This document shows, in pieces, positions 26,216-40,392 of a stretch of DNA of 64,000 bases. The stretch's first letter is position 1, and every line of letters begins with the position of its first letter. The notes below the pieces were generated by a model. The model did no database searches. It had not been told where the DNA came from and saw only the letters and a list, made by a program, of their open reading frames with translations. The position numbers and the translations under genes were made by a program. The DNA comes from Flavobacterium palustre (GTDB lineage Bacteria; Bacteroidota; Bacteroidia; Flavobacteriales; Flavobacteriaceae): NCBI RefSeq assembly GCF_014639535.1, contig NZ_BMGA01000005.1, positions 214,750 to 278,749 on the forward strand, given 5' to 3'.

Positions 26216-27703
26216 TTAATGTTCGGCTGTTACTTTTGGTGCCGGCTTTGCTCTGATTGCTTTTACTTTGGCCGGAGTTACAACTGTTTTATTGTTTCCC
26301 CAACTGTTGTACACATAGGTTAACACATCGGCGACTTCTTCGTCTGTTAAATTCTGACTGGTCATGACATTATTGAATTTTTTACCATTTACTGTAATTT
26401 CTCCACTCAATCCATGTAATACGGCGCTAATGGCCCTATTAGGATTGGCATTCAGAAAATCAGATTTTGCTAACGGAGGGAAGGCATTCGGTACTCCTTG
26501 TCCTTCTGATTGATGGCAGGCAAAACAGGTTCTTCCGTACAATTCTCTACCTGATTTAATTTGCTCCGCAACGGTTTTAGCTACAACACTTTTCGCAGTA
26601 CCATTCTCTTTTGGCATGTTTTGTATTGTTCCGCCTTCAGGCAAATAAATTCCTTCCTGGGTTGTTCCTGAATAGACTTTTTTATTCTCATCGCCTTCCA
26701 CTTTTAGCATTCCCAAAGCTCCTTTGTTAAATGCTCTGAAAATAGAGTGATCAACCAGAATAAAAGTTCCCGGAACATCTACTTTAAACTCGACTATGGC
26801 TGAACCACCCGCAGGAATTAAAGTAGTCTGTACATTTTTATTAATTACATCTCCTCCTTCGATGTGTACTTTATCGAAAATTTCCCCGATAACATGGAAT
26901 GAAGAAACCAAATTTGGCCCACCATTACCCATATAAATACGAACCGTTTCTCCTACTTTGGCCGTAATGGCTTTATCTCCTGTTACCGCTCCTACTTTTC
27001 CATTAAAAACTACATAATCAGCTTGTTCCTTGATGGCTTTATTCATATCAAAGGGTTGTTTTCCTTGTTCGCCATAACTTCCTTTGGTATAAAAATCCCC
27101 TTGCATCACATAGTATTCTTTATCCACCGGCGGTAATCCTCCTTCGGGTTCGACCAAAATCAAACCATACATTCCGTTAGCAATGTGCATCCCAACAGGC
27201 GCTGTGGCACAGTGATAGACATACAAACCGGGATTTATAGTCTTAAAATTGAATACTTTTTCGTGTCCCGGCGCTACCAAAGAAGAAGTTGCTCCTCCAC
27301 CCGGTCCGGTTACGGCATGCAAATCGATGTTATGCGGCATTTTATTATCAGGATGGTTTTTTAAGTGAAATTCGACTTCGTCACCTACTCTCGTTCTGAT
27401 AAAACTTCCCGGAACAGAACCACCAAAAGTCCAATAGGTATATTTTACCCCGTCGGCCATTTCGCCTTCCTGTTCTTTAATTTCCATATTGACTATCAGT
27501 TTCATCGCCGCCCGGTCTCCCACCGGTTTAGGAACCAATGGCGGTGCTGTAAGCTCGGCTTCTTTTTGACCTTCGACTTTGATGTCCTGATAATATTGAG
27601 CATCTTTGTCTTCTTTTTTGGCACAAGAAAACAAACCAAAAGCCATTGCAATTGCTACGGCAATTCTGATGCTTTGTTTCTTTAAATTTAGTTTGGGTTT
27701 CAT
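26216..27703 (-). CDS. nirK: Copper nitrite reductase NirK with C-terminal cytochrome c
   Basis: Reduces nitrite to NO in the periplasm. 495 residues: lipobox (GLFSC), two cupredoxin domains (about 60-345) and a cytochrome c domain (about 380-495, CFACH). Copper ligands are visible in [23 protein letters not shown] (type 1 Cys, His, Met) and [17 protein letters not shown]. Lipid anchoring and a fused donor domain make it a self-supplied membrane-tethered enzyme. A -7 box TATATTTG (minus strand, 27740-27747) and the shared 19-bp element lie upstream. Confidence 0.97.
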
Positions 27704-27739
27704 AGTTATTTGGTGTTAAATTTATCTTGATTTGTACTA

Positions 27740-27783
27740 CAAATATAAAAGATAAAAACATCCTTTATTATGATATTTGTCAT
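27740..27783 (-). promoter_or_regulatory. nirK promoter with -7 box, 19-bp element and FNR-like site
   Basis: Minus-strand -7 box TATATTTG at 27740-27747. The 19-bp element AAAGATAAAAACATCCTTT (plus strand) at 27748-27766 directly abuts it, so it would cover roughly -33 to -14. ATGATATTTGTCAT at 27770-27783 is a near-palindrome resembling an FNR site. The start codon is 30 bases after the predicted start of transcription. Confidence 0.65.
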
Positions 27784-27804
27784 GTTTGTACTTTTTATTC
27801 TAAT

Positions 27805-28047
27805 TTATTTCATCAAAAAAATGACTAAAACCAAGACTCCTAAAACCAGACTTAAACTATATTTCCAAAACGGATTTGCTTTCTTCAGTTCCATAAATTG
27901 GAAAGCAACTAAAAGAAATTTTATAGAAGAAAAAAAAAGAATTAAAAGGATTATATCATCAGAAAAAAGGTCAGCATTTGAAATTAAAGCAGTAACCAAA
28001 GTCAGTACAATCAATAATCCATACGTAAATACCAGTGATTTTTTCAT
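27805..28047 (-). CDS. norF: NorF-like small membrane protein (cytochrome oxidase subunit IV family)
   Basis: 80 residues, three hydrophobic helices (about 5-25, 30-52, 60-79), of the small cytochrome c oxidase subunit IV family that includes NorF. It directly follows the norE-like gene with a 3-base gap. NorE/NorF support maturation or stability of nitric oxide reductase in other denitrifiers; the role here is inferred from order and topology. Confidence 0.75.
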   Translation of the reverse strand: MKKSLVFTYGLLIVLTLVTALISNADLFSDDIILLILFFSSIKFLLVAFQFMELKKANPFWKYSLSLVLGVLVLVIFLMK

Positions 28048-28050
28048 TTG

Positions 28051-28632
28051 TCAAAAAATTAAATAGAGAATTGGGAATAACAACAACCAGATCAAATCGC
28101 ACATGTGCCAGAAAGCAGCACAGGCTTCCACATCTTCAATTTGAGTATCCGATTTTTGCTTTGTCATTCCGTAATTCGTCCAGATTAAAATAACCAATCC
28201 GATAATAACATGAATCAGATGAAATCCTGTTAACAACCAATAAAACGTGAAAAACATATTGGTATCCAATGCAATCCCCGACTCGATTTTATGATAATAT
28301 TCCAGGCTTTTTAGGAGTAAAAATAATAATCCGCCCAGCATGGTCAGTTTAAAATAAAACGATGATTTTTGAATATTTTTCTCTTTAAATTGCTGCACCG
28401 CATTGACCATAAAAAAACCACTTGACAACAGAAAAACAGTATTTATGGCTCCAAAAGTAGTATTGAGTTGTAATCTTGATTGATGGAATAATTCTGTTTG
28501 CTCACTTCCGTAAAAAACCAATGCAACCATTGCCATCCCGAAAGTAATCAGTTCCAAAAAAATAATAATCCACATCAGAATACCTCCCGGCGGATAATAA
28601 ATATTTTTATAATTGATTTTTAGTGTTTCCAT
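28051..28632 (-). CDS. norE: NorE-like cytochrome oxidase subunit III family protein
   Basis: 193 residues from the Met at 28632 (MYYF... further upstream comes from an intergenic repeat tract and is unlikely to be translated). Five or so helices, with the subunit III-type patterns YYPPGGILMWIIIF, FHLIHVIIGLVIL and CAAFWHMCDLIWLLLFPILY. Lone small subunit III genes next to norCBQD are called norE. It is separated from the DUF438 gene by a tandem TCTAAAT repeat. Confidence 0.82.
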   Translation of the reverse strand: METLKINYKNIYYPPGGILMWIIIFLELITFGMAMVALVFYGSEQTELFHQSRLQLNTTFGAINTVFLLSSGFFMVNAVQQFKEKNIQKSSFYFKLTMLGGLLFLLLKSLEYYHKIESGIALDTNMFFTFYWLLTGFHLIHVIIGLVILIWTNYGMTKQKSDTQIEDVEACAAFWHMCDLIWLLLFPILYLIF

Positions 28633-28713
28633 ATATAATAATTTTAGATTGCAGATTTGTGATTTTAGATTGTAAAATGGAAAAAATAAAAAGTAATACA
28701 ATCATGGAAAAAA

Positions 28714-28741
28714 TCTAAATTCTAAATTCTAAATTCTAAAT
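28714..28741. repeat. Tandem heptamer repeat TCTAAAT x4
   Basis: Four exact copies of TCTAAAT between the DUF438-type gene and the norE-like gene. Confidence 0.9.
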
Positions 28742-28754
28742 TCTTAAATCAAAC

Positions 28755-29720
28755 CTACTCCCAATCCAGCAATCGTTTTTCGCCTTCAATTTTCCTGATA
28801 TCGGTTATATCCTGAGACATTTCGATAACACCTCTATAATTTTTATCAGCATCACGAACAGCGAAATAGCGAATGTAAATCAGACGTTCTTTGTAATTGA
28901 TCCAAAAAGAAGATTCATTTTTGGTTCCTTTTCGAAATTCTTCCAGGATTCTAAGAACCGTTCCTACACTTTTGGGCGGATGGCAAAATTTCACCTCACG
29001 ACCAATGATTCCGGCGCTTCTGGGAAAAACGCGCTCTTCTCCGCGATTGTAAAAAATCACTCTGTCATTTTCATCCACATAAGTCAAATCCAAAGGCATC
29101 GTTCTGAAAAGTAAATTCACCTGCTCCACAGTCATATAACCTTCATCATAATGCGAAGTGTTTTCAAGCGAAAAAGGCAACTCCCGCTGTGTAAAATCCT
29201 CACTTGGATGAATGTATTCTTCTTGAGTAAAAGGCGCAGGATTTTGCGGTAACATCCAGCCTATTTCTTCTTCACCGGCACGCATTTTTATCCAGTCTTC
29301 TTCAGTAAGCAAGTCCAACGCATTGGGAAACAAAACCGTTTCTTCCACATGCATCAGCCGATAAATCCCATCCACCAGAAACGGAGTATTGATAGTTACT
29401 TTCTCAAAATTTTGATTCCTAAGATAATAACGAATCAAACGAAATTGATCTCTCAAATTATCATGAAATGACCACATTCCCTGTGAAGGACCAACCCAGT
29501 TTTTCTTTTCTAAAAAGGGAAAAAGCTGGTTTTCTTTTCGCGCAAATCGTTTTTCAATCGTGGATAACTGATTAAAAACATTGGTATATTTTTGAAAATC
29601 CTCTTCTGGAATGGTATTCGATAATTCTTCTAAAAGAGAATGAATCAGGTCATTTTCCTGAAAATACACCCGAATGGGATGTCCTTCAGGAAGTTTTGTA
29701 GTATGTGTTGTTTTTATCAT
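28755..29720 (-). CDS. DUF438-type hemerythrin-PAS protein
   Basis: 321 residues from the Met at 29720 (MIKTTHTTKLPEGH). The N-terminal part (about 1-150) is a hemerythrin-like helical region with His and Glu in FARKENQLFPFLEKK, SFHDNLRDQ and LMHVEETVLFPNA; the C-terminal part (about 195-315) is a PAS domain (MTVEQVNLLFRTMPLDLTYV, GREVKFCHPPKS). There is no membrane segment or output domain. A diiron/PAS pair beside nor genes suggests a sensor or scavenger of NO or oxygen. It lies between norD and norE, separated from norD by a strong inverted repeat. Confidence 0.85.
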   Translation of the reverse strand: MIKTTHTTKLPEGHPIRVYFQENDLIHSLLEELSNTIPEEDFQKYTNVFNQLSTIEKRFARKENQLFPFLEKKNWVGPSQGMWSFHDNLRDQFRLIRYYLRNQNFEKVTINTPFLVDGIYRLMHVEETVLFPNALDLLTEEDWIKMRAGEEEIGWMLPQNPAPFTQEEYIHPSEDFTQRELPFSLENTSHYDEGYMTVEQVNLLFRTMPLDLTYVDENDRVIFYNRGEERVFPRSAGIIGREVKFCHPPKSVGTVLRILEEFRKGTKNESSFWINYKERLIYIRYFAVRDADKNYRGVIEMSQDITDIRKIEGEKRLLDWE

Positions 29721-29750
29721 TGTAATAAATTTTTCCCACCCCACCCGTTG

Positions 29751-29806
29751 GGCACCCCTCCAGAGGAGGGGAATTTAAGCGACTTCCCCTCCTCTGGAGG
29801 GGTGCC
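29751..29806. repeat. 23-bp perfect inverted repeat element
   Basis: Arms 29751-29773 and 29784-29806 are exact complements (GGCACCCCTCCAGAGGAGGG... ), separated by 10 bases. Each arm is itself near-palindromic and outer CCACCCC/GGGGTGG arms (29738-29849 region) extend the symmetry. It lies between norD and the DUF438-type gene and stands out as GC-rich. Confidence 0.9.
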
Positions 29807-29855
29807 TGACACAAGCGACAGCGAACTGGCGAAGCAAAGGCGGGGTGGATTTTAG

Positions 29856-31631
29856 TTATTTTTGGTGTCTTATCTTCTCGTATAATTTGACTAAAGACTG
29901 TAACAGCTCGACTGCTGTTGTTAAAATCTGATAATGATTTTGCCCGAACATTTGCGGCAAATAGTACTTGGCTTCAGCTTCAATTGCCAAAGCATAAGAA
30001 TTAATATTTTTACTATTCAATTCCCGAAGTGCCTGTTTGACATCGTTGATGCCGTATTTTCCTTCGTACTTATCGTAATCATTGGGCTTTCCGTCAGAAA
30101 TCAGGATGACCCATTTATTTTTAGTATTTCTTTGATCTAGTCGGGCACCGGCATGACGCAACGCAGCGCCAATTCGGGTATAACCGTTAGGTTCTATGGC
30201 TCCAATTTTATGTTTGCCAATGTTCCAATTTTCATCAAAATCCTTAACCGTCAAATAGGTCGAATAGTTTCGGGTTTTTGAATAAAAACTGTCTATCGAA
30301 AAATCGATATTGAATTCGTTCAGGATTTCTCCAAACAAAATTGAAACCTCTTTTTCTACATCAATCACTCGGTTTCCGGCAGCATAACTGTCACTGGACA
30401 GACTGATATCCAAAAGAATCAGAATGGATAAATCTTTCTCTTTTTTACGATTTGAAATATAAACTTTCTCCGAAGGTGTTCTTTTCGAATGCACATCAAC
30501 ATACAAATCGGTAATGGCATCAATATCAAATTCCTCGCCTTGTGTCTGACGCTTTTGCTGCTGCATTTTGTTGTTAACATTCGTCAACATTTTGCGCAAG
30601 CCTAATAAAGTTGAAGCGTTTTTTGCAATTGTCATTTTGTAATAATCAGCATCCGTTTTTTGCTGTAATTTGGGATAGACTTTACAAAAGTCTTGTTTGT
30701 AAACCGCTTTGCTACAATCCCATTCGTCATAGAGCAAATGATAACCTTTAGCATCCACTTCGGCACTTTCTGAAATAGAAGTGTTTTCGATAAAATCAGC
30801 CTGATAAACCGAATGTGCCGTATCATCGACACGAACGGTATATTTCATATTCAATTCTTCCAGCGCATCCTGATGTTCTTCAAGTTCGTCACTACCATCA
30901 AAATCGCGCCAAACTCCATTGAATTCTTCAGCCGTTTCTACCTTTTCAAAATTATGCAGCATGACATAATCTTCCTGTTGTTTTTTATCCAATTCCACCG
31001 TTACCACTTCTTCCACTGCTGTTGCTTTCAATGTAGTTGTCGGCTGATTTTCAATTCCTTTTTTGGTAATATCAGCGAAATTTTCGAGTAACGTTTCAGA
31101 ATTTTGTTCCACTTCGTTTTTCATCCATTTGCCATAAAGCCAGGAAAAATCAGCAGCTTTTTTCTCAGTTGCCTGTTCGATAAAATGCTGCTTTGCCCGG
31201 GAATGAAAATTTCTGTCGATAGCATATTCTTCGAAAATAATTTTCAAAATCGCATCAGCACTTTCGAATGCTTTTTGCTGCGAAAGTTCCAGTGACGGTT
31301 CATTTTCTTCAGAAGTCCAATTGAGATTTAATCGTTGTTGAACACTTAAAAACAGTGTTCGAAAAAGATAAAAAGTCAGATTTTCTTCTTTCGTATCTAA
31401 TTCGGCAAAGGAAATTGGAAGGAAAAAATTATTGTTTTTATAACCGCCTTCCCTTTCAGCCGGATAAATAGCGATAGCCTTTCCGGTTAATGCCCGCGCC
31501 AGAATGGTCAATCGCGGTTTGATGTCAATTAGAAAAACCGTTTTTTCTAAAATTTCGGGAGCTGTTTTTTTTCTTTTTTTCAATTGCTTGAAAAACTTCC
31601 CAACTAAATATTCGTCTAATTCAAATCCCAT
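29856..31631 (-). CDS. norD: Nitric oxide reductase activation protein NorD
   Basis: 591 residues; the C-terminal third is a von Willebrand A domain with the MIDAS motif DISLS (ILILLDISLSSDSYAAGNR) and ISDGKPNDYDK. The long N-terminal part is the usual NorD region. NorD works with the AAA+ protein NorQ to insert iron into NorB. It follows norQ by 109 bases. Confidence 0.93.
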   Translation of the reverse strand: MGFELDEYLVGKFFKQLKKRKKTAPEILEKTVFLIDIKPRLTILARALTGKAIAIYPAEREGGYKNNNFFLPISFAELDTKEENLTFYLFRTLFLSVQQRLNLNWTSEENEPSLELSQQKAFESADAILKIIFEEYAIDRNFHSRAKQHFIEQATEKKAADFSWLYGKWMKNEVEQNSETLLENFADITKKGIENQPTTTLKATAVEEVVTVELDKKQQEDYVMLHNFEKVETAEEFNGVWRDFDGSDELEEHQDALEELNMKYTVRVDDTAHSVYQADFIENTSISESAEVDAKGYHLLYDEWDCSKAVYKQDFCKVYPKLQQKTDADYYKMTIAKNASTLLGLRKMLTNVNNKMQQQKRQTQGEEFDIDAITDLYVDVHSKRTPSEKVYISNRKKEKDLSILILLDISLSSDSYAAGNRVIDVEKEVSILFGEILNEFNIDFSIDSFYSKTRNYSTYLTVKDFDENWNIGKHKIGAIEPNGYTRIGAALRHAGARLDQRNTKNKWVILISDGKPNDYDKYEGKYGINDVKQALRELNSKNINSYALAIEAEAKYYLPQMFGQNHYQILTTAVELLQSLVKLYEKIRHQK

Positions 31632-31740
31632 ATTTTTTTTAGTATTCAGTGTTCGGTTAATTAGTAATCAGTGATTTAGAATAGTCAATATTTTCGCCAG
31701 TTCACTGAACACTAAAAATCTGACCACTGACCACTCTTTT

Positions 31741-32532
31741 CTATATCATCAAATCGCATAAATCTTTCAGGGCTTGAATTGTTTGTAAATCATCTGTCAA
31801 CGGTTCAACAATAGCCACATGAACAGACAATCGTTTAGGCAATCCGCTGTGGATGATTTTAGCGGCATCAACCAGCAATCGGGTGGAAACCGTTTCGGTC
31901 AATCCTAATTCAGTCAGATTCCTAATTTTATTCCCAATGGCGACTAATTTCTTAGCGGTATCCGAATCAATTTCGGTTTCATTAATCAGGATTTCTGTTT
32001 CAATTTTTGGTTCGGGATAATCAAAAGAAACTGCAATAAATCGCTGGCGTGTGGATGGTTTTAGTTCTTTAAAACCTCTTTGATAACCCGGATTAAAAGA
32101 AGCAACCAACATAAAATCCTCATGTGCTTTTACCGTTACGCCCAGTTTATCGATAAACAATTCGCGTCGGTGATCGGTCAGGGAATGGATGGCCACAATC
32201 ACATCGGGACGGGCTTCGGCAACCTCATCGAGATAAAGGATAGAACCTTCTTTTACGGCTGTTGTCAAAGGTCCGTCAAGCCAAACGGTTTCTGCTCCTT
32301 TGATGATAAATCGCCCAATTAAATCAGTGGAAGAAGTTTCTTCATGACAACTAATCGTAATTAGTTTTTTATCCAATTGATGCGCCATGTATTCTATAAA
32401 ACGGGATTTTCCCGTTCCTGTTGGTCCTTTCAATAAAATAGGAATTTTGTTTTTATAAGCTTGCTTAAAAACATCCATCTCTTTGCCAACAGCATGGTAA
32501 TAAGGTATATTTATTAAAGTATCTACTAACAT
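31741..32532 (-). CDS. norQ: MoxR-type AAA+ ATPase NorQ
   Basis: 263 residues. Walker A GPTGTGKSR, Walker B ILYLDEVAEA, sensor 1 region VASFNPGYQ and arginine-finger-like SKTRQRF-type segment (STRQRFIAVSFDYPE). Partner of NorD in activation of nitric oxide reductase. It follows norB by 114 bases containing an inverted repeat. Confidence 0.95.
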   Translation of the reverse strand: MLVDTLINIPYYHAVGKEMDVFKQAYKNKIPILLKGPTGTGKSRFIEYMAHQLDKKLITISCHEETSSTDLIGRFIIKGAETVWLDGPLTTAVKEGSILYLDEVAEARPDVIVAIHSLTDHRRELFIDKLGVTVKAHEDFMLVASFNPGYQRGFKELKPSTRQRFIAVSFDYPEPKIETEILINETEIDSDTAKKLVAIGNKIRNLTELGLTETVSTRLLVDAAKIIHSGLPKRLSVHVAIVEPLTDDLQTIQALKDLCDLMI

Positions 32533-32554
32533 ATTTTTAAAATTTTTAGAAAAA

Positions 32555-32626
32555 AACCGGAATTCCCAACAAAGGTTTTCATGGAAATGCAGTAACTAAG
32601 AAACAGTTGTTAAAGTCTTCCGGTTT
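32555..32626 (-). terminator. Long-range hairpin between norB and norQ
   Basis: AAACCGGAA (32555-32563) and TTCCGGTTT (32618-32626) pair over a 54-base loop and are followed by T-runs on both strands. It could cut norQ-norD-norE expression relative to norCB or protect the upstream mRNA end. The long loop makes strong termination uncertain. Confidence 0.45.
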
Positions 32627-32646
32627 AAAAAAAAGGGATTCGTTAG

Positions 32647-33981
32647 TTATTTTATTTCTAAAGCTTCATCCGAAGGACGTCCGTATTTAAAGAAATCATA
32701 AATAAACAGACTTATTCCGATAGTAAACATCGTGGCACAAATGAGCAGCACAACAAAATGAATACTGATTTCGTTTTGAACCACCATAAATTCCATTTTC
32801 ATTTTGCGTTCCAAATAGACCTGAACCACACCGGCAACTCCAAAAGCAGTTGTCATTCCCAGCATTCCAACATTGGATAACCAAAATGCTACATTTCCCT
32901 GTGTACTATTGTAGCGTTTGCGCCCAGTTAAATTTGGAAGTGCATAACTGATAATTGCCAAAACAATCATCGCATAAGCGCCCCAAAAAGCGTAATGTCC
33001 GTGCATAGCCGTTACTAATGTTCCGTGTGTATATAAATTAGTTTGAGGTAAAGTATGTGCAAAACCTAATAATCCGGCTCCAATAAATGAAACAATAGAA
33101 GCGCCAATAGTCCAGAATAAAGCTATTTTGTTAGGATGACTTTTTTCTCCTTTGCGGTACATATTCACTGCGAATAATGCCATAGCCAGGAAAGCCAGAG
33201 GTTCCAAAGCAGAGAAAATTCCACCAACAATCAACCAGATTTTATTCACTCCAATATAATAATAGTGATGTCCGGTTCCTAAAACTCCTGAAAGAAAAGT
33301 CAAACCTACAATTACATACAGCCATTTTTCGATAACCTCTCTGTCAACTCCGGTTAATTTGATTAACAGGAATGAAAGAATCCCTCCCATAATTAACTCC
33401 CAAACTCCTTCAACCCATAAATGCACTACCCACCAACGGAAGAAAGAATCCGTTACCTGACTGTCAAACCAAATCATTCCCGGGATATATAATAAAGCGG
33501 CAAAGAATAAGCCCATGACCAGCACTATTGCAGTAGTCGTTTTTTGTTTTCCTTTATACAGCGTTCCTATAATTAGAGATAAGAAAAGTAAAACGTTAAC
33601 TACTACTAAATAATCCAGCTCTCTTGGAATCTCCAGAAACTTTCTTCCTTCCCAATGATTTAAGTGAAAACCAATAATGGCTACAACTCCTACCACTGCT
33701 AAGGAAATTAATTGGACATAAGCCCATTTTACGCTTATGAGTTCGTGTTGCGCTTCTTCAGGAATAATGTAATAGGCTGCTCCCATAAAACCCGTTAGCA
33801 ACCAAACTACCAGTAAATTAGTATGTACGGCACGCGCTGTATTAAACGGAATAATATCGTGTAATCCCTGAATTCCTATTCGGTCAAAGCCCATGATAAA
33901 GCCATAAACAATTTGCAATAAGAACAATAACATACACAATGCAAAAAACCAATAGGCGACTTTTTGTGATTTATATTTCAT
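32647..33981 (-). CDS. norB: Nitric oxide reductase large subunit NorB (cNor type)
   Basis: 444 residues, 12 transmembrane helices, heme-copper oxidase superfamily; contains the NorB-type pattern NTARAVHTNLLVVWLLTGFMGAAYY and His residues in VVHLWVEGVWE, GTGHHYYYIG and AMHGHYAFWGAY. Reduces NO to N2O in the inner membrane with electrons from NorC. There is no N-terminal extension, so this is the cytochrome-c-dependent type, not qNor. It follows norC by 11 bases. Confidence 0.96.
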   Translation of the reverse strand: MKYKSQKVAYWFFALCMLLFLLQIVYGFIMGFDRIGIQGLHDIIPFNTARAVHTNLLVVWLLTGFMGAAYYIIPEEAQHELISVKWAYVQLISLAVVGVVAIIGFHLNHWEGRKFLEIPRELDYLVVVNVLLFLSLIIGTLYKGKQKTTTAIVLVMGLFFAALLYIPGMIWFDSQVTDSFFRWWVVHLWVEGVWELIMGGILSFLLIKLTGVDREVIEKWLYVIVGLTFLSGVLGTGHHYYYIGVNKIWLIVGGIFSALEPLAFLAMALFAVNMYRKGEKSHPNKIALFWTIGASIVSFIGAGLLGFAHTLPQTNLYTHGTLVTAMHGHYAFWGAYAMIVLAIISYALPNLTGRKRYNSTQGNVAFWLSNVGMLGMTTAFGVAGVVQVYLERKMKMEFMVVQNEISIHFVVLLICATMFTIGISLFIYDFFKYGRPSDEALEIK

Positions 33982-33992
33982 ATTTGTAAAAT

Positions 33993-34427
33993 TTAATTAT
34001 TTTCTTTTGCTAATGGTGAAACCACTCGGTCAAAACCATTCAAATCAATTTTCCCAATCCATTTTAAGTAGGCAACAACAGCATCGGCGTCTTTTTCATT
34101 CATTTTATAAACTACCATTTTTCGTCCGTTGGGTGCCCAGGGTACCGGCGACATCAAAGCAGCTTTGATATATCCTTCTCCTCTTCGCTCCACTACTTTT
34201 GTCAATTCCGGAGCATAATAACCTCCTTCTCCCATAATGGAATGGCATCCCATACAATTATTGGTTTCCCAAAGCTCCTTTCCCCGTACTACCTGTTTAT
34301 CAATTTTGGTATAATTTGTTTGGTCATTTCGGGGCATGAACGAATAAATGGTCAGTCCTATAAAAATTAAAAAGGTGACCAGGGTTCCTCCCAAAAAAAA
34401 TGCTCTTGCTTGTGATTTTGAAAGCAT
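33993..34427 (-). CDS. norC: Nitric oxide reductase cytochrome c subunit NorC
   Basis: 144 residues from the Met at 34427 (MLSKSQARAFFLGGTLV), which gives the usual single N-terminal membrane anchor; an upstream extension would run through promoter sequence. One heme site NCMGCHSIMGEGGYYAPEL. It passes electrons from soluble cytochromes to NorB. First gene of norCBQD, with the shared 19-bp element upstream. Confidence 0.95.
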   Translation of the reverse strand: MLSKSQARAFFLGGTLVTFLIFIGLTIYSFMPRNDQTNYTKIDKQVVRGKELWETNNCMGCHSIMGEGGYYAPELTKVVERRGEGYIKAALMSPVPWAPNGRKMVVYKMNEKDADAVVAYLKWIGKIDLNGFDRVVSPLAKENN

Positions 34428-34471
34428 AATTACTTGTTTTTTTTTGTTAATAAAATTACTCGAATTCAAAT

Positions 34472-34490
34472 AAAGGATAAATTTGTCTTT
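34472..34490 (-). promoter_or_regulatory. 19-bp element in the norC promoter
   Basis: On the minus strand AAAGACAAATTTATCCTTT, directly followed by ATTTG, a partial -7 box. It matches the nirK, narK and RIC copies and lies 45-63 bases upstream of the norC start codon. Confidence 0.65.
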
Positions 34491-34529
34491 TATTTGATAT
34501 TGCAAAGAAAAGGCTGATATGAAATTTAA

Positions 34530-34549
34530 AATATGATTTAAATCATATT
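34530..34549. promoter_or_regulatory. FNR-like perfect 20-bp palindrome between norC and RIC
   Basis: AATATGATTTAAATCATATT is a perfect palindrome containing TGAT-TTAA-ATCA, the two half-sites typical of FNR/CRP-family activators. It lies in the divergent region between norC and the RIC gene and may serve both. Confidence 0.7.
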
Positions 34550-34659
34550 CTGTCTTTTTTATTCTTCTTAAAATTACATTCTCAAATAAGAGTATTCAAT
34601 ACCATCCTAAACAACTAATTAAAAACAAATTACAAAACATAATTTGGCACAGTATAATT

Positions 34660-34678
34660 TAGGACAATTTTATCCTTT
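34660..34678 (+). promoter_or_regulatory. 19-bp element in the RIC promoter
   Basis: TAGGACAATTTTATCCTTT, 16 of 19 bases identical to the norC copy and followed by TTATTTA, close to a -7 box. Confidence 0.6.
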
Positions 34679-34732
34679 TTATTTAAAACATTATTTTATA
34701 GCAAAAAAATTAAAACTTAAAGAACAACAATT

Positions 34733-35461
34733 ATGGAAACATTAGAAAAAACAACCATCGGAGAATATGTAGCAAAAGATTTCAGAACAGCAGCCATTTT
34801 TTCAAAATACGGCATCGATTTTTGCTGCAAAGGAAACAGAACAATTGAAGAAGCCTGTGACAAAAAAGGACATGATTCAGAAACTATTTTAAATGAAATC
34901 AATGCTGTTTTAAACACTAAAAATGATAACAACATCGATTTTCAATCATGGCCTCTGGATTTATTAGCCGATTATATCGAGAAAACCCATCACCGTTATG
35001 TGGAAGAAAAAACTCAAATCTTACTTCCTTTCTTAGACAAATTGTGCAGAGTACACGGCGCATCTCATCCTGAATTATTTGCCATCAATGAATTGTTCAT
35101 TGGCTGCGCAGGCGAGTTGGCACAACACATGAAAAAAGAAGAACTGATTTTATTTCCTTTTATCAAAAAAATGGTCAAAGCAACACTACAGGATGAGTTA
35201 GTAGAACAACCTCATTTTGGAACTGTCGAAAATCCAATTGCCATGATGATGCACGAACACGATGCCGAAGGAGAGCGTTTTAGAAAAATAGCCGGATTAA
35301 CCAATGATTATACCCCACCGGCAGATGCCTGCAATACTTACAAAGTAACCTTTGCCATGCTTCAGGAATTCGAACAGGATTTACACAAACACATTCACCT
35401 GGAAAACAACATCTTATTCCCAAAAGCAGTCGAATTAGAGAAAAAAATTTCAGCACAATAA
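34733..35461 (+). CDS. Iron-sulfur cluster repair di-iron protein (RIC/ScdA/YtfE)
   Basis: 242 residues. The N-terminal ScdA domain carries the double Cys (IDFCCKGNRTIEEAC) and the C-terminal part is a hemerythrin-like diiron domain with His/Glu in KTHHRYVEEK, GASHPELF, QHMKKEE, MHEHDAEGERF and KHIHLENN. It repairs Fe-S clusters damaged by NO or oxidants. Transcribed divergently from norC, fitting an NO-stress role. Short start: the ATG follows a spacer with the shared 19-bp element. Confidence 0.96.
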   Translation: METLEKTTIGEYVAKDFRTAAIFSKYGIDFCCKGNRTIEEACDKKGHDSETILNEINAVLNTKNDNNIDFQSWPLDLLADYIEKTHHRYVEEKTQILLPFLDKLCRVHGASHPELFAINELFIGCAGELAQHMKKEELILFPFIKKMVKATLQDELVEQPHFGTVENPIAMMMHEHDAEGERFRKIAGLTNDYTPPADACNTYKVTFAMLQEFEQDLHKHIHLENNILFPKAVELEKKISAQ

Positions 35462-35666
35462 TAAAAACAAATAAGTAAACAGGGGAGCGCTTAAAAAAAA
35501 GTTAGACACGAATTCCACCAATGGTCACTAATTCTAATCAATAAAAAATCAAATAACAAAATTTCTTTCTGCCTTTGGCAGATTCGTGGAATTAAAAAGA
35601 GTACAATTTGTGGTAATTATTTTTAAATGTGAATCCCAGGTAAGTAAACTAAAATCATCAAATGCT

Positions 35667-37757
35667 ATGGAAAAATATGTTATAAAAAGAAACGGCCAAT
35701 ACAAGCCTTTTGAACCTTTTAAAATAAAAGACGCTATCGAAAAAAGCTTCCTGAGTGTTTCCATGGCAATTGATGAAAACATTTTTGAAAATGTTATCCG
35801 GGACTTAGAGTCTAAGGAAACCTGGGCGGTAGAAGAAATTCAGGATTTAATCGAGAAAAATCTTTTTGAAAAAAAGTATTTTGAAGTCATGCGTTCGTTT
35901 ATGCTGTTCCGCCATACCCGAAAACTGCAACGCGAGCATATTGATGGTTTAAACGAAGACACCACTTATGTGGACAGCACTCAGACTATCGAAGAATACA
36001 TTGAACAAACCGATTGGCGCATTAATGCCAATGCCAATACCTCCTACTCTAATGCCGGTTTGGTCAATAATGTAGCGGGAAAAATCATTGCTAATTATTG
36101 GCTGGATAAAGTGTATACCAAAGAAGAAGGTTATGCCCACCGTAACGGAGATATTCACATTCATGATTTGGATTGCCTGACCGGCTATTGCGCCGGCTGG
36201 AGTTTGCGGGTATTATTGAACGAAGGTTTTAACGGTGTTCGCGGTCGTGTGGAAAGCAAAGCACCGTCGCATTTCAGGGAAGCGCTGGGACAAATGGCAA
36301 ATTTTCTTGGGATTTTGCAAAGCGAATGGGCAGGTGCTCAGGCTTTCAGTTCTTTCGATACTTATTTGGCGCCTTATGTTTTCAAAGACAATCTCTCTTT
36401 TGATGATGTACTGAAAGCGGTTCGCAGTTTTGTTTACAATCTGAATGTTCCGGCGCGTTGGGGACAATCGCCTTTTACCAACATCACTTTGGACTGGGTG
36501 GTTCCTGAAGATTTAAAAACGCAAATTCCGACGAAAAATGATTTACACTTTTTTGAAGGTAACTTCAATTATGATCTTTTAGTCAGAGCCAAAGAACGAG
36601 GTGTAACTAAATTAACCGATTTGCGTTACGAGCATTTCCAAGCCGAAATGAATCTCATCAACAAAGCTTATTACACCGTAATGACCGAAGGCGATGCCAA
36701 TGGACAGCCTTTTACCTTCCCGATTCCAACGGTAAATATCACCGAAGAATTTGACTGGAACGGAGAAAATACCGATTTACTTTTCGAAAATACAGCTAAA
36801 ATTGGTTCTTCTTATTTTCAGAACTTTATCGGGAGCCAATATGTTTTGGATGAAAACGGAAATAAAACAGAAAATCCGAATGCTTATAAACCCAATGCCG
36901 TTCGCTCTATGTGTTGTCGTTTACAATTAGATTTACGCGAATTGTTAAAACGCGGAAACGGTCTTTTTGGAAGTGCCGAAATGACGGGAAGTATTGGTGT
37001 TGTGACCATCAACATGGCGCGTTTGGGCTATTTGTACAAAGGAAATAAAGCCGAATTATTCGAACAATTAGACCAATTATTATACATTTCAAAATCGACT
37101 TTGGAGAAAAAAAGAATCTTTATTCAGGAAATGTACGACCGTGGTTTGTATCCGTACACCAAGCGTTACCTGCAACATTTCAGAAATCATTTTTCTACCA
37201 TCGGCGTAAACGGAATCAACGAAATGATTGTCAATTTTTCCGAAAATCAGGACACAATAACTTCCAACACAGGAATCGCATTAGCTTCTGAAATTCTGGA
37301 TCATATTCGCAACCGAATGAAAGAATTTCAGGAACAAACCGGAAATTTATATAATCTGGAAGCCACGCCAGCCGAAGGAACGACCTATCGTTTTGCCAAA
37401 GAAGACAAGAAACGCTTTGCCGATATTTATCAGGCGGGACAGGAAGAAAATATTTATTACACTAACAGTTCGCAAATTCCGGTAAATCATACCGAAGATC
37501 CATTCGAAGCCTTGTTTTTACAGGATGAATTACAATGCAAATACACCGGAGGAACGGTTTTACATTTGTATATGAGTGAAAAAATCAGTTCTCCTGAAGC
37601 CTGTAAACAATTTGTAAAAAAAGTGTTGTCTAACTTCAAACTGCCTTACATCACCGTAACGCCGGTATTTAGTGTTTGTCCTGTTCATGGTTATTTGAAC
37701 GGCGAGCATGAATATTGCCCGAAATGTGATGATCTTTTATTAATGGAAAAAAGTTAG
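35667..37757 (+). CDS. nrdD: Anaerobic ribonucleoside-triphosphate reductase NrdD, main part (lacks glycyl-radical tail)
   Basis: 696 residues from the Met at 35667 (MEKYVIKRNGQYKPFEPF, the normal ATP-cone start; the longer frame begins in repeat DNA). ATP-cone about 1-90, then the class III reductase barrel. The C-terminus has the zinc-site Cys of NrdD (SVCPVHGYLNGEHEYCPKC) but stops at LLLMEKS, about 40-50 residues short of the RVxGY glycyl-radical tail. That tail is on a separate downstream gene (37847-38011). It makes dNTPs without oxygen, in line with the denitrifying neighbourhood. Confidence 0.93.
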   Translation: MEKYVIKRNGQYKPFEPFKIKDAIEKSFLSVSMAIDENIFENVIRDLESKETWAVEEIQDLIEKNLFEKKYFEVMRSFMLFRHTRKLQREHIDGLNEDTTYVDSTQTIEEYIEQTDWRINANANTSYSNAGLVNNVAGKIIANYWLDKVYTKEEGYAHRNGDIHIHDLDCLTGYCAGWSLRVLLNEGFNGVRGRVESKAPSHFREALGQMANFLGILQSEWAGAQAFSSFDTYLAPYVFKDNLSFDDVLKAVRSFVYNLNVPARWGQSPFTNITLDWVVPEDLKTQIPTKNDLHFFEGNFNYDLLVRAKERGVTKLTDLRYEHFQAEMNLINKAYYTVMTEGDANGQPFTFPIPTVNITEEFDWNGENTDLLFENTAKIGSSYFQNFIGSQYVLDENGNKTENPNAYKPNAVRSMCCRLQLDLRELLKRGNGLFGSAEMTGSIGVVTINMARLGYLYKGNKAELFEQLDQLLYISKSTLEKKRIFIQEMYDRGLYPYTKRYLQHFRNHFSTIGVNGINEMIVNFSENQDTITSNTGIALASEILDHIRNRMKEFQEQTGNLYNLEATPAEGTTYRFAKEDKKRFADIYQAGQEENIYYTNSSQIPVNHTEDPFEALFLQDELQCKYTGGTVLHLYMSEKISSPEACKQFVKKVLSNFKLPYITVTPVFSVCPVHGYLNGEHEYCPKCDDLLLMEKS

Positions 37758-37813
37758 ATGTTAAGAGTTAAGCGTCAGTAAAATTGGCAACTAACTCCTA
37801 ACCCTTAACACAT

Positions 37814-37834
37814 AACTCATAACTCATAACTCAT
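37814..37834. repeat. Tandem heptamer AACTCAT x3
   Basis: Three exact copies of AACTCAT lie in the 89-base gap between nrdD and its separate tail gene. Confidence 0.9.
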
Positions 37835-37846
37835 AATCCGAAAAAC

Positions 37847-38011
37847 ATGAAAACAGCCACGAACCCTATTTTAGAAGAAAAACAGCATTTAAGAACCAAA
37901 TGCTTAGTGTACACCCGAGTAATGGGCTATCACCGACCTGTAGAAAGTTTCAACATTGGAAAAAAAGGAGAACACAAACAACGCACTCATTTCAATGAAG
38001 GAAAATGTTAG
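37847..38011 (+). CDS. Separate glycyl-radical C-terminal fragment of NrdD
   Basis: 54 residues, start MKTATNPILEE. Residues 16-48 carry RTKCLVYTRVMGYHRPVES and FNIGKKGEHKQRTHF, matching the last segment of class III reductases, where the Gly of RVxGY (here Gly27) bears the radical. The main NrdD gene ends without this segment. In-frame stops occur upstream of its ATG, and the 89-base gap with a repeat argues against a single-base sequencing error. Its end overlaps the nrdG start by 17 bases, suggesting translational coupling. Whether the two parts assemble is inferred. Confidence 0.85.
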   Translation: MKTATNPILEEKQHLRTKCLVYTRVMGYHRPVESFNIGKKGEHKQRTHFNEGKC

Positions 38012-38684
38012 TACACCTATTTACAGCATAACGCCTTTTACTTTATTAGATTATGCGCATCAATCAGCCTGTATTCTTTGGTTTGCAGGCTGTAATATGC
38101 GTTGCCTTTATTGTTACAATCCCGAAATTGTTCTTGGAAAAGGAAGTATTTCTTTCGAAAAAACGCTTGCTTTTCTTCATTCCCGTAAAAATTTACTCGA
38201 TGCAGTTGTTTTTAGCGGAGGCGAATGTTTGTTACACAAAAACATCATTGAACTGATTATCGAAGTCAAAAAAATGGGCTTCCTGGTAAAAATTGACACC
38301 AACGGTTCAAAACCAAATATCCTAAAAACACTGATAGAAAAGCAATTAATTGATTATGTCGCTTTGGATTTTAAAACCCTGCCAGAGCATTTTGAAAAAA
38401 TAACCCAATCACTGCTTTTTTCTCCGTTTGAAAAATCCTTACATTTATTGCTGGAAAGCCCGCTTCCGTTTGAAGTACGCACCACTGTTCATTCGGAATT
38501 GCTTACTGAGAAAGACATCCAACAAATGATTGTTTATTTAGAAAAGAAAAATTACACCGGAAATTATTACATCCAGCATTTTGTAAATGATGTAAAAACT
38601 CTGGAAAAATTAGGGCATTCGTTCCGGAAATTAGACAGTCAACAACTTTCTACACCAAAAATCAACGTCCATTTTAGAGGATAA
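37995..38684 (+). CDS. nrdG: Anaerobic ribonucleotide reductase activase NrdG
   Basis: 229 residues from the Met at 37995 (MKENVSTPIYSITPF); the longer frame begins inside the glycyl-tail gene. Radical SAM motif CNMRCLYC (Cys-x3-Cys-x2-Cys) followed by FSGGECLL and DTNGSKP, typical of glycyl-radical activases. It uses S-adenosylmethionine to create the glycyl radical on the reductase, here apparently on the separate small protein. Confidence 0.92.
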   Translation: MKENVSTPIYSITPFTLLDYAHQSACILWFAGCNMRCLYCYNPEIVLGKGSISFEKTLAFLHSRKNLLDAVVFSGGECLLHKNIIELIIEVKKMGFLVKIDTNGSKPNILKTLIEKQLIDYVALDFKTLPEHFEKITQSLLFSPFEKSLHLLLESPLPFEVRTTVHSELLTEKDIQQMIVYLEKKNYTGNYYIQHFVNDVKTLEKLGHSFRKLDSQQLSTPKINVHFRG

Positions 38685-38686
38685 TT

Positions 38687-39904
38687 ATGCAAAAATCCTG
38701 GCTTTTAATCTGTTTTATCAATTTCTTTATCGCAGCTCTCATGGGATTACTGCTTCGATTGCTGTATGTATTCTCTGTTGAAAGTATCAATTATCAGTTT
38801 TTATTGCACGGACATTCTCATGTTGCCATGTTAGGCTGGGTTTACCTGATGATTTACAGTTTGATTGTTCATTTTTTTATTCCAAAAACAGCACAACAAA
38901 AACCCGTTTACAACCGATTATTCTGGCTAACCGAAATTGCTGTTATCGGTATGATGTTTCGCTTTCCTGTTGAAGGATATGCTTTATTTTCGATTACCTT
39001 TTCTACACTACATATTTTTTGCAGTTATTATTTCTGCCGATTAGCCTGGAAAGATGCCCGTACTGAGTCGCTGCCTGAAAAACTACTTTTGAGAACGGCT
39101 TTATTTTTTATGATTGTATCAACTTTAGGTGTTTGGTGTTTGGGTCCGGCAGTTGGATTATTAGGTAAAGCCAGTGCTTTTTATCAAATTGCCATTCAGT
39201 TTTTCCTGCATTTCCAATTTAACGGTTGGTTTTTGTTTGCCATTTTAGCCTTATTTTTTAATCAGTTAAAAGGCAATATCAACGAAAAGCAATTTCAACT
39301 ATTCTATAATTTATTGGTTACAGCTACCGTTTTAACTCTTGCTTTGCCGGTGAGTTGGTATCTTCCTAATCCTGCTTTTCATTGGATAAACAGTCTGGGA
39401 GTGCTATTGCAACTGCTTTCTTTTATCCTTTTTATTCAAATAATCAGACCGCATTTTCAAACTTTCTTTGCCAATTTAAAACCCGTTGAAAAACTGGTTT
39501 ATGGTTTTGCCTTAACCTCATTGTTCTTGAAAATTATCATTCAATTAGTGGTTTTAATTCCGGAATTAGCCCAAATTTCACATCAGATTCGGAATTTTGT
39601 CATTGGTTATATCCATCTGACGATGTTAGGGATTATCACTGGTTTTTTGTTTGCTTTTCTGCTAAAAAATTCTTTTTTAAACGACTCAAAAAAAATATCC
39701 AATTGGGAAATAAAACTATTCATTTTTAGCTTTGTACTAACCGAATTGCTGTTATTCGGACAAGGCATTTATCTCTTTTTAGGCCTTGGACAATTTCCAT
39801 GTTATTACCAAAATCTATTTTTATCTAGTATTTTCTTACCTATAGCTATTTTTATGCTTGTTTTAGGGCTTTTTAAAGGCACAATTAAATCACATAAATA
39901 CTGA
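38687..39904 (+). CDS. Histidine-rich 12-helix membrane protein, heme-copper-oxidase-like or NnrS-like
   Basis: 405 residues, about 12 transmembrane helices. His41, His43 and His45 in LLHGHSHVAMLGW, a His near 175 (FFLHFQFNGWF) and His310 (GYIHLTMLGIITGF) sit in helices and could bind heme or metal, as in heme-copper oxidase subunit I or NnrS, a membrane protein of NO tolerance. The proton-channel and Cu-ligand motifs of a true oxidase are not clear. It starts two bases after nrdG and precedes the NsrR-like gene, so an NO- or anaerobiosis-linked role is likely but unproven. Confidence 0.65.
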   Translation: MQKSWLLICFINFFIAALMGLLLRLLYVFSVESINYQFLLHGHSHVAMLGWVYLMIYSLIVHFFIPKTAQQKPVYNRLFWLTEIAVIGMMFRFPVEGYALFSITFSTLHIFCSYYFCRLAWKDARTESLPEKLLLRTALFFMIVSTLGVWCLGPAVGLLGKASAFYQIAIQFFLHFQFNGWFLFAILALFFNQLKGNINEKQFQLFYNLLVTATVLTLALPVSWYLPNPAFHWINSLGVLLQLLSFILFIQIIRPHFQTFFANLKPVEKLVYGFALTSLFLKIIIQLVVLIPELAQISHQIRNFVIGYIHLTMLGIITGFLFAFLLKNSFLNDSKKISNWEIKLFIFSFVLTELLLFGQGIYLFLGLGQFPCYYQNLFLSSIFLPIAIFMLVLGLFKGTIKSHKY

Positions 39905-39936
39905 AAATTGAGTCGAATAATAACGCTTATTTTCTA

Positions 39937-39944
39937 TAAATTTG
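39937..39944 (+). promoter_or_regulatory. -7 box of the NsrR-like gene
   Basis: TAAATTTG, 13 bases before the start codon; the preceding AATAATAACGCTTATTTT contains AATAA and TTATT arms. Confidence 0.5.
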
Positions 39945-39957
39945 TAAAAAACTAATT

Positions 39958-40392
39958 ATGTTCTCTAAAACCTGTGAATACGGGATTCGGGCAACTATTT
40001 TCATTGCATCTGAATCCTATCAAAACAATAGAGTCGGACTGAAAGATATTGCCAAAAAGATAGATTCTCCTGAGGCTTTTACTGCCAAGATATTACAGAT
40101 TTTATCCAAAAACAATATTATCAATTCTATCAAAGGTGTGGGCGGTGGCTTTGAGATTCCAAAAGAAAAAATGAGTCAACTCAAATTGTCTCAAATTGTA
40201 ACGGCACTGGAAGGCGATTCTGTTTTTACCGGATGTGGTTTGGGTTTAAGCCATTGTTCTGAGGAACATCCTTGTCCGGTACATGAAAAATTCAAATCGA
40301 TTAGAAATGAATTGGCTTTTATGTTAGAAAACACTAATTTGGAGGAATTAGCAATGGGAATTAAATCAGGAGATACTTTTTTAAGGTATTAA
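39958..40392 (+). CDS. NsrR-like Rrf2-family regulator
   Basis: 144 residues. A winged-helix domain (MFSKTCEYGIRATIFIA, KKIDSPEAFTAKILQILS, KGVGGGFEI) is followed by three Cys (93, 100, 106: TGCGLGLSHCSEEHPC), spaced as Cys-x6-Cys-x5-Cys, like the Fe-S ligands of NsrR. NsrR senses NO through an Fe-S cluster. It is adjacent to NO-related genes and could bind the shared 19-bp element, which is inference. IscR is an alternative, but there are no suf/isc genes nearby. Confidence 0.82.
   Translation: MFSKTCEYGIRATIFIASESYQNNRVGLKDIAKKIDSPEAFTAKILQILSKNNIINSIKGVGGGFEIPKEKMSQLKLSQIVTALEGDSVFTGCGLGLSHCSEEHPCPVHEKFKSIRNELAFMLENTNLEELAMGIKSGDTFLRY

What the first reader, a model, noticed from the sequence alone, without database searches (positions are those of the whole stretch)
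35667..38684. Glycyl-radical tail of anaerobic ribonucleotide reductase encoded as a separate 54-residue protein
The main NrdD stops right after its zinc site (HEYCPKCDDLLLMEKS) without the RVxGY glycyl-radical segment. An independent 54-codon frame at 37847-38011 supplies exactly that missing segment (RVMGYHRPVES, FNIGKKGEHKQRTHF). It is separated by 89 bases holding an AACTCAT repeat and in-frame stops, and it overlaps the start of nrdG, the activase that acts on this Gly. A class III reductase whose radical sits on a stand-alone peptide would be a natural two-part glycyl-radical enzyme, conceptually like the GrcA spare part of pyruvate formate-lyase. Similar small genes may exist in other Flavobacteria under generic NrdD annotations, but I know of no functional description.
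Basis: partly seen in the sequence, partly recalled or inferred. Interest (0 to 1): 0.85.

Follow-up and report, generated by a model that had tools for sequence, protein, structure and literature searches.

The report
Two-chain anaerobic ribonucleotide reductase
In this bacterium, and in many others, the oxygen-sensitive radical-carrying loop of an enzyme that makes DNA building blocks without oxygen is encoded as a separate small protein, and many virus sequences carry a gene for that small part alone.

Summary
NrdD (35667-37757) ends after its zinc site. A 54-codon gene (37847-38011) supplies the missing RVMGY glycyl-radical loop and overlaps nrdG2 by 14 nt. The genome has no other nrdD.

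It is not an error or a decayed gene. All 51 core-bearing genomes of the genus sample have the tail as a separate ORF. The same split occurs in Bacteroidota, Campylobacterota, Verrucomicrobiota/Lentisphaerota and Pseudomonadota, including Cupriavidus necator H16. Tails have their own ATG, mostly with a ribosome site outside Bacteroidota, and are under strong purifying selection. In three Campylobacterota the tail+nrdG pair lies 59-125 kb from the core on the opposite strand, so recoding cannot explain it there. A few natural re-fusions and a second split type also occur.

Unexpectedly, viral contigs carry the tail without a core nearby: 78 of 80 in one scan, at least 55 of 67 in a second. Neighbour genes are often lysis, tail, packaging or recombination genes.

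Best reading: a two-chain class III reductase whose radical glycine sits on a small exchangeable subunit charged by NrdG, with phages supplying that subunit. The protein-level mechanism is inferred. I found no description in the papers held; Siedow et al. 1999 could not be read.

The parts
35667..37757 (+). nrdD core: ATP cone, ten-stranded barrel, MCCR finger loop, zinc site; 696 aa, no glycyl-radical loop
36909..36920 (+). MCCR finger-loop motif, residues 415-418, holding the expected thiyl-radical cysteine
   Evidence: invariant in alignment A5; the motif class is described in PMC9669993 section 9
37677..37727 (+). zinc site CPVHGYLNGEHEYCPKC, last conserved element of the core chain
   Evidence: sequence; C671, C684, C687 invariant, H674 in 90% or more
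37758..37846 (+). 89-nt spacer with ATAACTC tandem run and stop codons; not conserved in length or frame
   Evidence: in 77 split relatives the distance from stop to tail ATG runs from -44 to +867 nt
37847..38011 (+). stand-alone glycyl-radical tail gene, 54 aa; radical glycine codon at 37925-37927
   Evidence: Pfam NRDD 532-562; pN/pS 0.068 over the conserved block in Flavobacterium-type tails; conserved residues tabulated over 139 distinct cellular tails (the selection itself needs the RxMGY motif)
37998..38684 (+). nrdG2, radical-SAM activase; overlaps the tail gene by 14 nt
   Evidence: TIGR02495 NrdG2 194 bits, cut-off 131, scored on the longer ORF from 37956

Best explanation
It is a class III (anaerobic) ribonucleotide reductase made of two chains. 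The core (ATP cone, barrel, MCCR finger loop, zinc site) ends just before the radical loop. The 54-residue tail carries the RVMGY loop. NrdG2, whose gene overlaps the tail gene, abstracts hydrogen from the tail glycine. The tail then threads into the barrel of the core, where the glycyl radical makes the cysteinyl radical for each turnover. Because oxygen cuts glycyl-radical enzymes at the glycine, only the small chain would need replacing after exposure to air, which would suit facultative denitrifiers. Phages that carry the tail alone probably supply this subunit to their host's reductase. Shown: gene anatomy, conservation, independent translation signals, lack of linkage in some genomes, carriage by viral contigs. 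Inferred: the physical complex, radical formation on the small chain, exchangeability, the use to phages.
For: Genus sample of 150: 51 genomes have a core and all 51 have the tail as a separate ORF; one more (G046) shows only a tail, at a contig edge; the other 98 show no NRDD match. Of 80 named loci 77 are split, 0 fused, 3 not classifiable. In 4 of 7 plasmid regions opened (Sulfuricurvum, Cupriavidus necator H16, Aquabacterium, Bradyrhizobium) PGAP lists core, small 'nrdD' and activase as three genes; the other three are fused, not annotated, or a tail without core. In Campylobacterota the tail+nrdG pair lies 95, 59 and 125 kb from the core on the other strand in G1066, G1179 and G1156; a 456-aa ORF separates core and tail in G1118 and G1174; the order is core-nrdG-tail in G1119. 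SD-like site before the tail ATG in 39 of 45 Campylobacterota and 20 of 23 Pseudomonadota/PVC tails, against 7-8% at any ATG. pN/pS 0.068. Fused window-type rows L199, L202 and L175 nest inside split clades; the fused L202 chain aligns with P. copri NrdD to residue 735, through the glycine loop, while the window core stops at 703. [quoted passage not shown]
Against: No experiment on the small chain was seen. The two chains were not modelled together (the tool takes single chains). Relative frames are not even: of 77 split loci the tail is in the +1 frame in 49, frame 0 in 14 and +2 in 14, many with a short overlap, and in part of the Campylobacterota it follows in frame after a stop, so some recoded fused product cannot be excluded in those genomes. 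The oxygen-replacement benefit is an argument from PFL/GrcA, not data. No Bacteroidota tail shows an SD site (0 of 82); that Bacteroidota seldom use one is recalled. Tails of viral contigs are less constrained (pN/pS 0.36).
Confidence: 0.85

Rival explanations
1. The two frames are joined by programmed frameshifting or stop read-through into one ordinary NrdD.
For: The +1 frame is over-represented (49 of 77), mostly with a short overlap of the two ORFs; in part of the Campylobacterota core and tail share a frame with a stop between.
Against: All three relative frames and distances from -44 to +867 nt occur; tail and core lie at distant loci on opposite strands in G1066, G1179, G1156; the tail ATG has its own SD-like site in 39 of 45 Campylobacterota tails.
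Confidence: 0.05
2. Sequencing error or decayed pseudogene.
For: None found.
Against: The split recurs in 51 of 51 core-bearing genomes of the genus sample and in four phyla; pN/pS 0.068 over the conserved tail block.
Confidence: 0.01
3. The tail is a GrcA-type spare part only; the core takes its radical from another source, or the tail is regulatory.
For: Extra tail copies occur in some genomes; GrcA/YfiD does this for pyruvate formate-lyase (PMC8683613, passages).
Against: The split cores have no glycine loop of their own and the own genome has no other NRDD piece; nrdG2, a glycyl-radical activase by family, overlaps the tail gene.
Confidence: 0.06
4. For the phage-borne tails: they are decoys that quench or block the host's reductase or activase instead of feeding it.
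For: A lone radical-loop peptide could occupy NrdG or the core; sequence alone cannot separate gain from block.
Against: The glycine is present in the tail of all 80 first-type loci and in those second-type tails whose letters I read, though scan patterns and motifs favour it; phage replication needs dNTPs; T4 carries a working spare part, Y06I, for PFL (PMC8683613, passage).
Confidence: 0.15

Closest known systems
Single-chain class III RNR (NrdD/NrdG; T4, T. maritima, P. copri, S. thermophilus structures)
   Same: Same barrel, ATP cone, zinc site, finger-loop motif and activase family
   Different: The glycine loop is on a second polypeptide with an N-terminal extension (consensus ILE...R[TQS][KR]C)
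GrcA/YfiD and phage T4 Y06I, autonomous glycyl-radical cofactors of pyruvate formate-lyase
   Same: A small stand-alone protein bears the radical glycine and is charged by the enzyme's activase; also phage-borne (PMC8683613, PMC12338860, passages)
   Different: The window tail has no hit to that family; GrcA repairs an enzyme that has its own glycine, whereas here the core has none
Split class II RNR NrdJa/NrdJb (Pseudomonas aeruginosa)
   Same: An RNR divided into a catalytic chain and a small C-terminal chain in one operon
   Different: NrdJb mediates disulfide exchange and is not a radical carrier. [quoted passage not shown]
Split phage RNR genes (six nrdD cases, e.g. phiAS4 and Lactococcus phage 949; nrdA-a/b with mobE)
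   Same: RNR genes in pieces
   Different: Described as scattered breaks, several by introns, inteins or homing endonucleases (PMC3653736, passages); no conserved cut before the glycine loop is mentioned in the passages seen. [quoted passage not shown]

Membership tests
Class III RNR, single-chain NrdD as described | NRDD domain over the curated cut-off | tested here: met
   core 539 bits, tail 28.5 bits, cut-off 26.2
Class III RNR, single-chain NrdD as described | RNR/GRE barrel fold | tested here: met
Class III RNR, single-chain NrdD as described | finger-loop cysteine motif (MGCR or MCCR) | tested here: met
   MCCR invariant in 39 rows; motif from PMC9669993 section 9
Class III RNR, single-chain NrdD as described | radical-SAM activase NrdG | tested here: met
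   TIGR02495 NrdG2 at the next ORF
Class III RNR, single-chain NrdD as described | RVxGY glycyl-radical loop in the same polypeptide | tested here: not met
   absent from the core, present on a separate ORF; hence filed as a two-chain variant, not as a single-chain NrdD
Class III RNR, single-chain NrdD as described | glycyl radical and NTP reduction | not testable with these tools
   needs EPR and enzyme assay
GrcA/YfiD autonomous glycyl-radical cofactor | homology to the PFL glycyl-radical domain | tested here: not met
   the only Pfam hit of the tail at E up to 1 is NRDD
GrcA/YfiD autonomous glycyl-radical cofactor | repairs an enzyme that normally has its own glycine | tested here: not met
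   the window core has no glycine loop. For phage tails in hosts with fused NrdD this was not tested
Split class II RNR (NrdJa/NrdJb) | class II catalytic chain | tested here: not met
   the core is NRDD/class III

The most novel reading that the evidence does not exclude
A widespread two-subunit glycyl-radical enzyme: the radical is made and stored on a small replaceable protein that docks into a glycine-less reductase, so oxygen damage is repaired by swapping a ~50-residue part. Phages and prophages of several lineages exploit this by encoding only that radical carrier, in two sequence types, to drive the host's anaerobic dNTP synthesis during infection.
Probability: 0.5. Interest if true: 0.92.

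Novelty: new variant of a known kind. Interest (0 to 1): 0.83.

Why it matters
In the glycyl-radical enzymes that I know of, the radical glycine lies in the catalytic chain. Here one of the central enzymes of DNA synthesis has it on a separate ~50-residue subunit across several phyla. That gives a natural system for studying activation, docking and oxygen repair of a glycyl radical, and would correct the published view that split class II NrdJ is the only split RNR of cells (PMC4520616). It also suggests a testable function for phage genes that now match only a family of unknown function (phrog_4132), and that phages manage host anaerobic dNTP supply with a single small radical carrier.

Tried and rejected
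Rejected: assembly error, second nrdD copy, fused frames in the genus. Four genomes whose 'open frame' looked 779-802 aa long in the search listing (G010, G017, G051, G179) have same-frame tails behind a stop, not fusions (L024, L029, L034; L460).

Led nowhere: the annotated phage collection gave no match with the window tail and four weak partial matches, in three records, with two other tails; two of the three records are annotated there as anaerobic reductase. PHROGs gave no family for two phage neighbour genes (L379, L433). Allochromatium vinosum plasmid pALVIN01 holds a tail but no core on the plasmid; its chromosome was not searched.

Weak points of my own scripts. Tree: L251 is labelled split because my motif missed its RRTCGY loop; it is an outgroup row with a very long branch. 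Support is SH-aLRT of a quick search, no bootstrap. Rows dropped before it: near-duplicates (one search keeps 77 rows), nine rows whose blast query L242 was an antisense ORF, L233, L231 (interrupted core), and all but five rows of the two distant NrdD types. In one search L051 was flagged split by a chance downstream ORF; it is fused. In one search the first ATG of the open tail frame was used, so some overlaps there look larger (-83 to -104); searches use the last ATG. The glycine count would accept a motif anywhere in the locus; I rely on the peptides printed. Whole-record search for a core was done for 50 of the 80 viral records of the first scan (30 short or near-duplicate records left out) and for none of the second scan's 67 loci.

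Limits of the print search: 10 searches of open-licence PMC papers, seen as listings, and passages from 14 papers showed no split class III RNR with a separate glycine peptide in cells, nor phage-borne NrdD tails. Siedow et al. 1999 (PMC93980) is not held and must be read before a priority claim. From recall only: it reports a 76-kDa NrdD, which would fit the 676-aa split core of pHG1.
Full report
**Check of the observation.** The sequence is as described. NrdD runs from ATG 35667 to 37757 and ends shortly after its zinc site. Eighty-nine bases later a 54-codon ORF (37847-38011) carries RTKCLVYTRVMGYHRPVESFNIGKKGEHKQRTHF. Pfam NRDD is matched at positions 2-528 by the large ORF and 532-562 by the small one. 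The activase is of the NrdG2 type; its likely start at 37998 overlaps the small gene by 14 nt. The own genome has these two NRDD pieces only and one large subunit of the class I/II kind (PF02867). The operon lies in what looks like a denitrification cluster, with genes that resemble norB, norC, norQ, norD and a nitrite reductase upstream and an iron-sulfur repair protein directly before nrdD (these names are read from the sequence starts and recalled, not from a family search).

**How far it is conserved.** Of 150 genomes drawn from the genus, 52 have an NRDD match: 51 have a core and G046 shows only a tail at a contig edge. I read all 51 core loci, and in each the core ends before the glycine loop and the tail is a separate ORF (31 in L001 and L003-L032, 20 in L459-L478). 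The other NrdD kind of the family, scored lower by the same model, is single-chain in the complete loci read (L036-L059). Split operons of the window's kind recur in other genera, families and orders of the phylum (G243, G445, G179, G537, G676, G916). By their titles they include Flavobacterium, Algoriphagus, Cyclobacterium, Parapedobacter, Campylobacter, Nautiliaceae, Sulfurimonadaceae, Arcobacteraceae, Akkermansia and Lentisphaeria. The tail matched 28 plasmid records; I opened 7. Four (Sulfuricurvum, Cupriavidus necator H16, Aquabacterium, Bradyrhizobium) list three genes, the small one as 'nrdD'; Cupriavidus metallidurans has no listed genes there but core and tail as two matches; Allochromatium has a tail without core; Acidiphilium is fused.

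Counting the printed listings by eye: in Campylobacterota 100 of 200 genomes match; in 81 the core match ends before the loop or a stop breaks the frame, 16 have an ordinary fused NrdD, 2 a fused window-type NrdD, 1 a fragment (the list of tail matches there is cut). In the class of the pseudomonadotan MAG G978, 21 of 229 match: 16 split, each with a listed tail, 4 fused, 1 weak. In the phylum of Akkermansia 99 of 145 match, 16 of them with the window's split type.

**Two proteins, not one recoded protein.** In the 77 split named loci the distance from core stop to tail ATG runs from -44 to +867 nt; relative frames are +1 in 49, 0 in 14 and +2 in 14. The excess of +1, mostly with a short overlap, is unexplained and is the one fact that leans to recoding. 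Against it, in G1066, G1179 and G1156 the tail sits with nrdG 95, 59 and 125 kb from the core on the opposite strand; in G1118 and G1174 a 456-aa ORF lies between; in G1119 the order is core, nrdG, tail. SD-like sites precede the tail ATG in 39 of 45 Campylobacterota tails, 20 of 23 Pseudomonadota/PVC and 44 of 61 viral tails, but 0 of 82 Bacteroidota; at any ATG the rate is 7-8%. The conserved tail block has pN/pS 0.068 (665 of 1431 pairs of 54 distinct tails, mostly Flavobacterium); the N-terminal extension is looser, 0.50. In 139 distinct cellular tails R-8, C-5, RVMGY, R+6, P+7, F+11, N+12, G+14, K+15, E+18 and R+22 stand at 100% as rounded; the selection itself required R-[VIA]-MGY-[HYL]-R.

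**Origin.** A tree of 63 NrdD rows, cut before the glycine domain, puts all window-like rows in one group (SH-aLRT 100): 36 split, 4 fused. Three fused rows nest inside split clades and read best as re-fusions (L202 and L199 with 99, L175 with 90); L214 lies at the base of the half that holds the Pseudomonadota rows. A second split type (L292, L309; tails like SRVCGYFRPVSNWNKGK) lies outside that group, with a fused group of 13 rows between or beside them. Two separate splits are the simplest reading; one older split with more re-fusions is not excluded. Among window-like ORFs in fetched loci, duplicates included, 175 are split and 5 fused.

**Phage-borne tails.** Extra unlinked tails in Campylobacterota lie near phage genes: L273 (G1066) near holin and phrog_34316 matches, L282 (G1102) near terminase and endolysin, L284 (G974) near phrog_34316; L274 (G1066) has look-alike neighbours that were not scanned. 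A second-type tail in the phylum of Akkermansia (L298, G1423) lies near Sak4, RusA and SSB families. G1161 also has a second, unlinked tail whose neighbours were not tested. A scan of IMG/VR found 132 tail relatives; in 78 of the 80 kept, neither core nor nrdG lies in the fetched flanks. Whole-record search of 50 of them: a core, in pieces, in one (G1585); tail only in 48, one of which (G1568) has a further weak 27-position match; nothing at threshold in one whose tail is printed. With the second tail type, of 67 loci 55 are alone, 3 near a core, 4 fused, and 5 were missed by my motif but show a short ORF with the glycine. Of 20 neighbour proteins scanned from 19 loci that I chose, 18 match a PHROG family, among them holin, amidase, spanin, tail fibre, tail chaperone, terminase, recombinase, helicase and exonuclease families. 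First-type tails match phrog_4132, of unknown function, but only its positions 114-157 of 179; the second-type tail matches NrdD phrog_487 better. Viral pN/pS is 0.36, looser than in cells. IMG/VR records can be fragments, so absence of a core in a record does not prove its absence in the virus; hosts were not determined, except that extra tail and split core share a genome in G1066, G1102 and G974.

**Mechanism.** The anatomy says the radical glycine can come from the second chain alone. Activation by NrdG2, docking of the tail in the barrel and radical transfer to an MCCR cysteine follow from known class III chemistry (PMC12662201 and PMC11226230, passages). That oxygen cuts such enzymes at the glycine (PMC3019208, passage) suggests why a cheap exchangeable carrier is useful. 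In Cupriavidus necator H16, whose operon is split, nrdDG is reported as essential for complete denitrification (PMC2864759, passage), so such an enzyme very probably works.

[quoted passage not shown] The passages shown from 14 papers mention no split class III enzyme of cells; none was read whole. PMC8683613 says it is tempting to speculate that spare parts may repair other GREs. Siedow et al. 1999 was not available.

Noticed in passing
L273 1858-2034; L274 1957-2145; L282 1967-2113; L284 1954-2265; L312-L391: Stand-alone NrdD glycyl-radical tails in prophage-like places and viral contigs, nearly all without a core nearby; first-type tails match part of phrog_4132, unknown function.
   Followed up: partly
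L292, L308, L309 and viral loci L392-L458: A second split NrdD type in genomes of Akkermansia's phylum, with tails like SRVCGYFRPVSNWNKGK and several tail copies in some genomes (G1550, G1423, G1414).
   Followed up: partly
L088-L167: Of 77 split loci the tail lies in the +1 frame of the core in 49, mostly with a short overlap; an excess over one third that is not explained.
   Followed up: no
G1318:C2:195825-198362 (L231, L233): A split NrdD core interrupted by a long in-frame insertion (1021-aa frame), possibly an intein. Viral L355 also has an interrupted core in a 1261-aa ORF.
   Followed up: no
L262, L263, L264, L266, L270, L305: NrdD chains that continue past the glycine domain into a C-terminal stretch that resembles a thioredoxin-like domain (APTLVV, NVSNIRRF; recalled likeness).
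   Followed up: no
L082 (G877): A 108-aa ORF holding only the zinc site and RVIGY loop of another NrdD type, in a genome with a fused NrdD; fragment or spare part.
   Followed up: no
L172 (Allochromatium vinosum pALVIN01): Tail gene annotated nrdD with no core on the plasmid.
   Followed up: partly
window 26216-40392: Denitrification-like gene cluster around the nrdD operon, with an iron-sulfur repair protein upstream and NnrS-like and Rrf2-like genes downstream (names recalled from sequence starts).
   Followed up: partly
L094, L108: MAG contigs titled Klebsiella pneumoniae and Bifidobacterium breve carry Flavobacterium-like nrdD tails; probably mislabelled MAGs.
   Followed up: no
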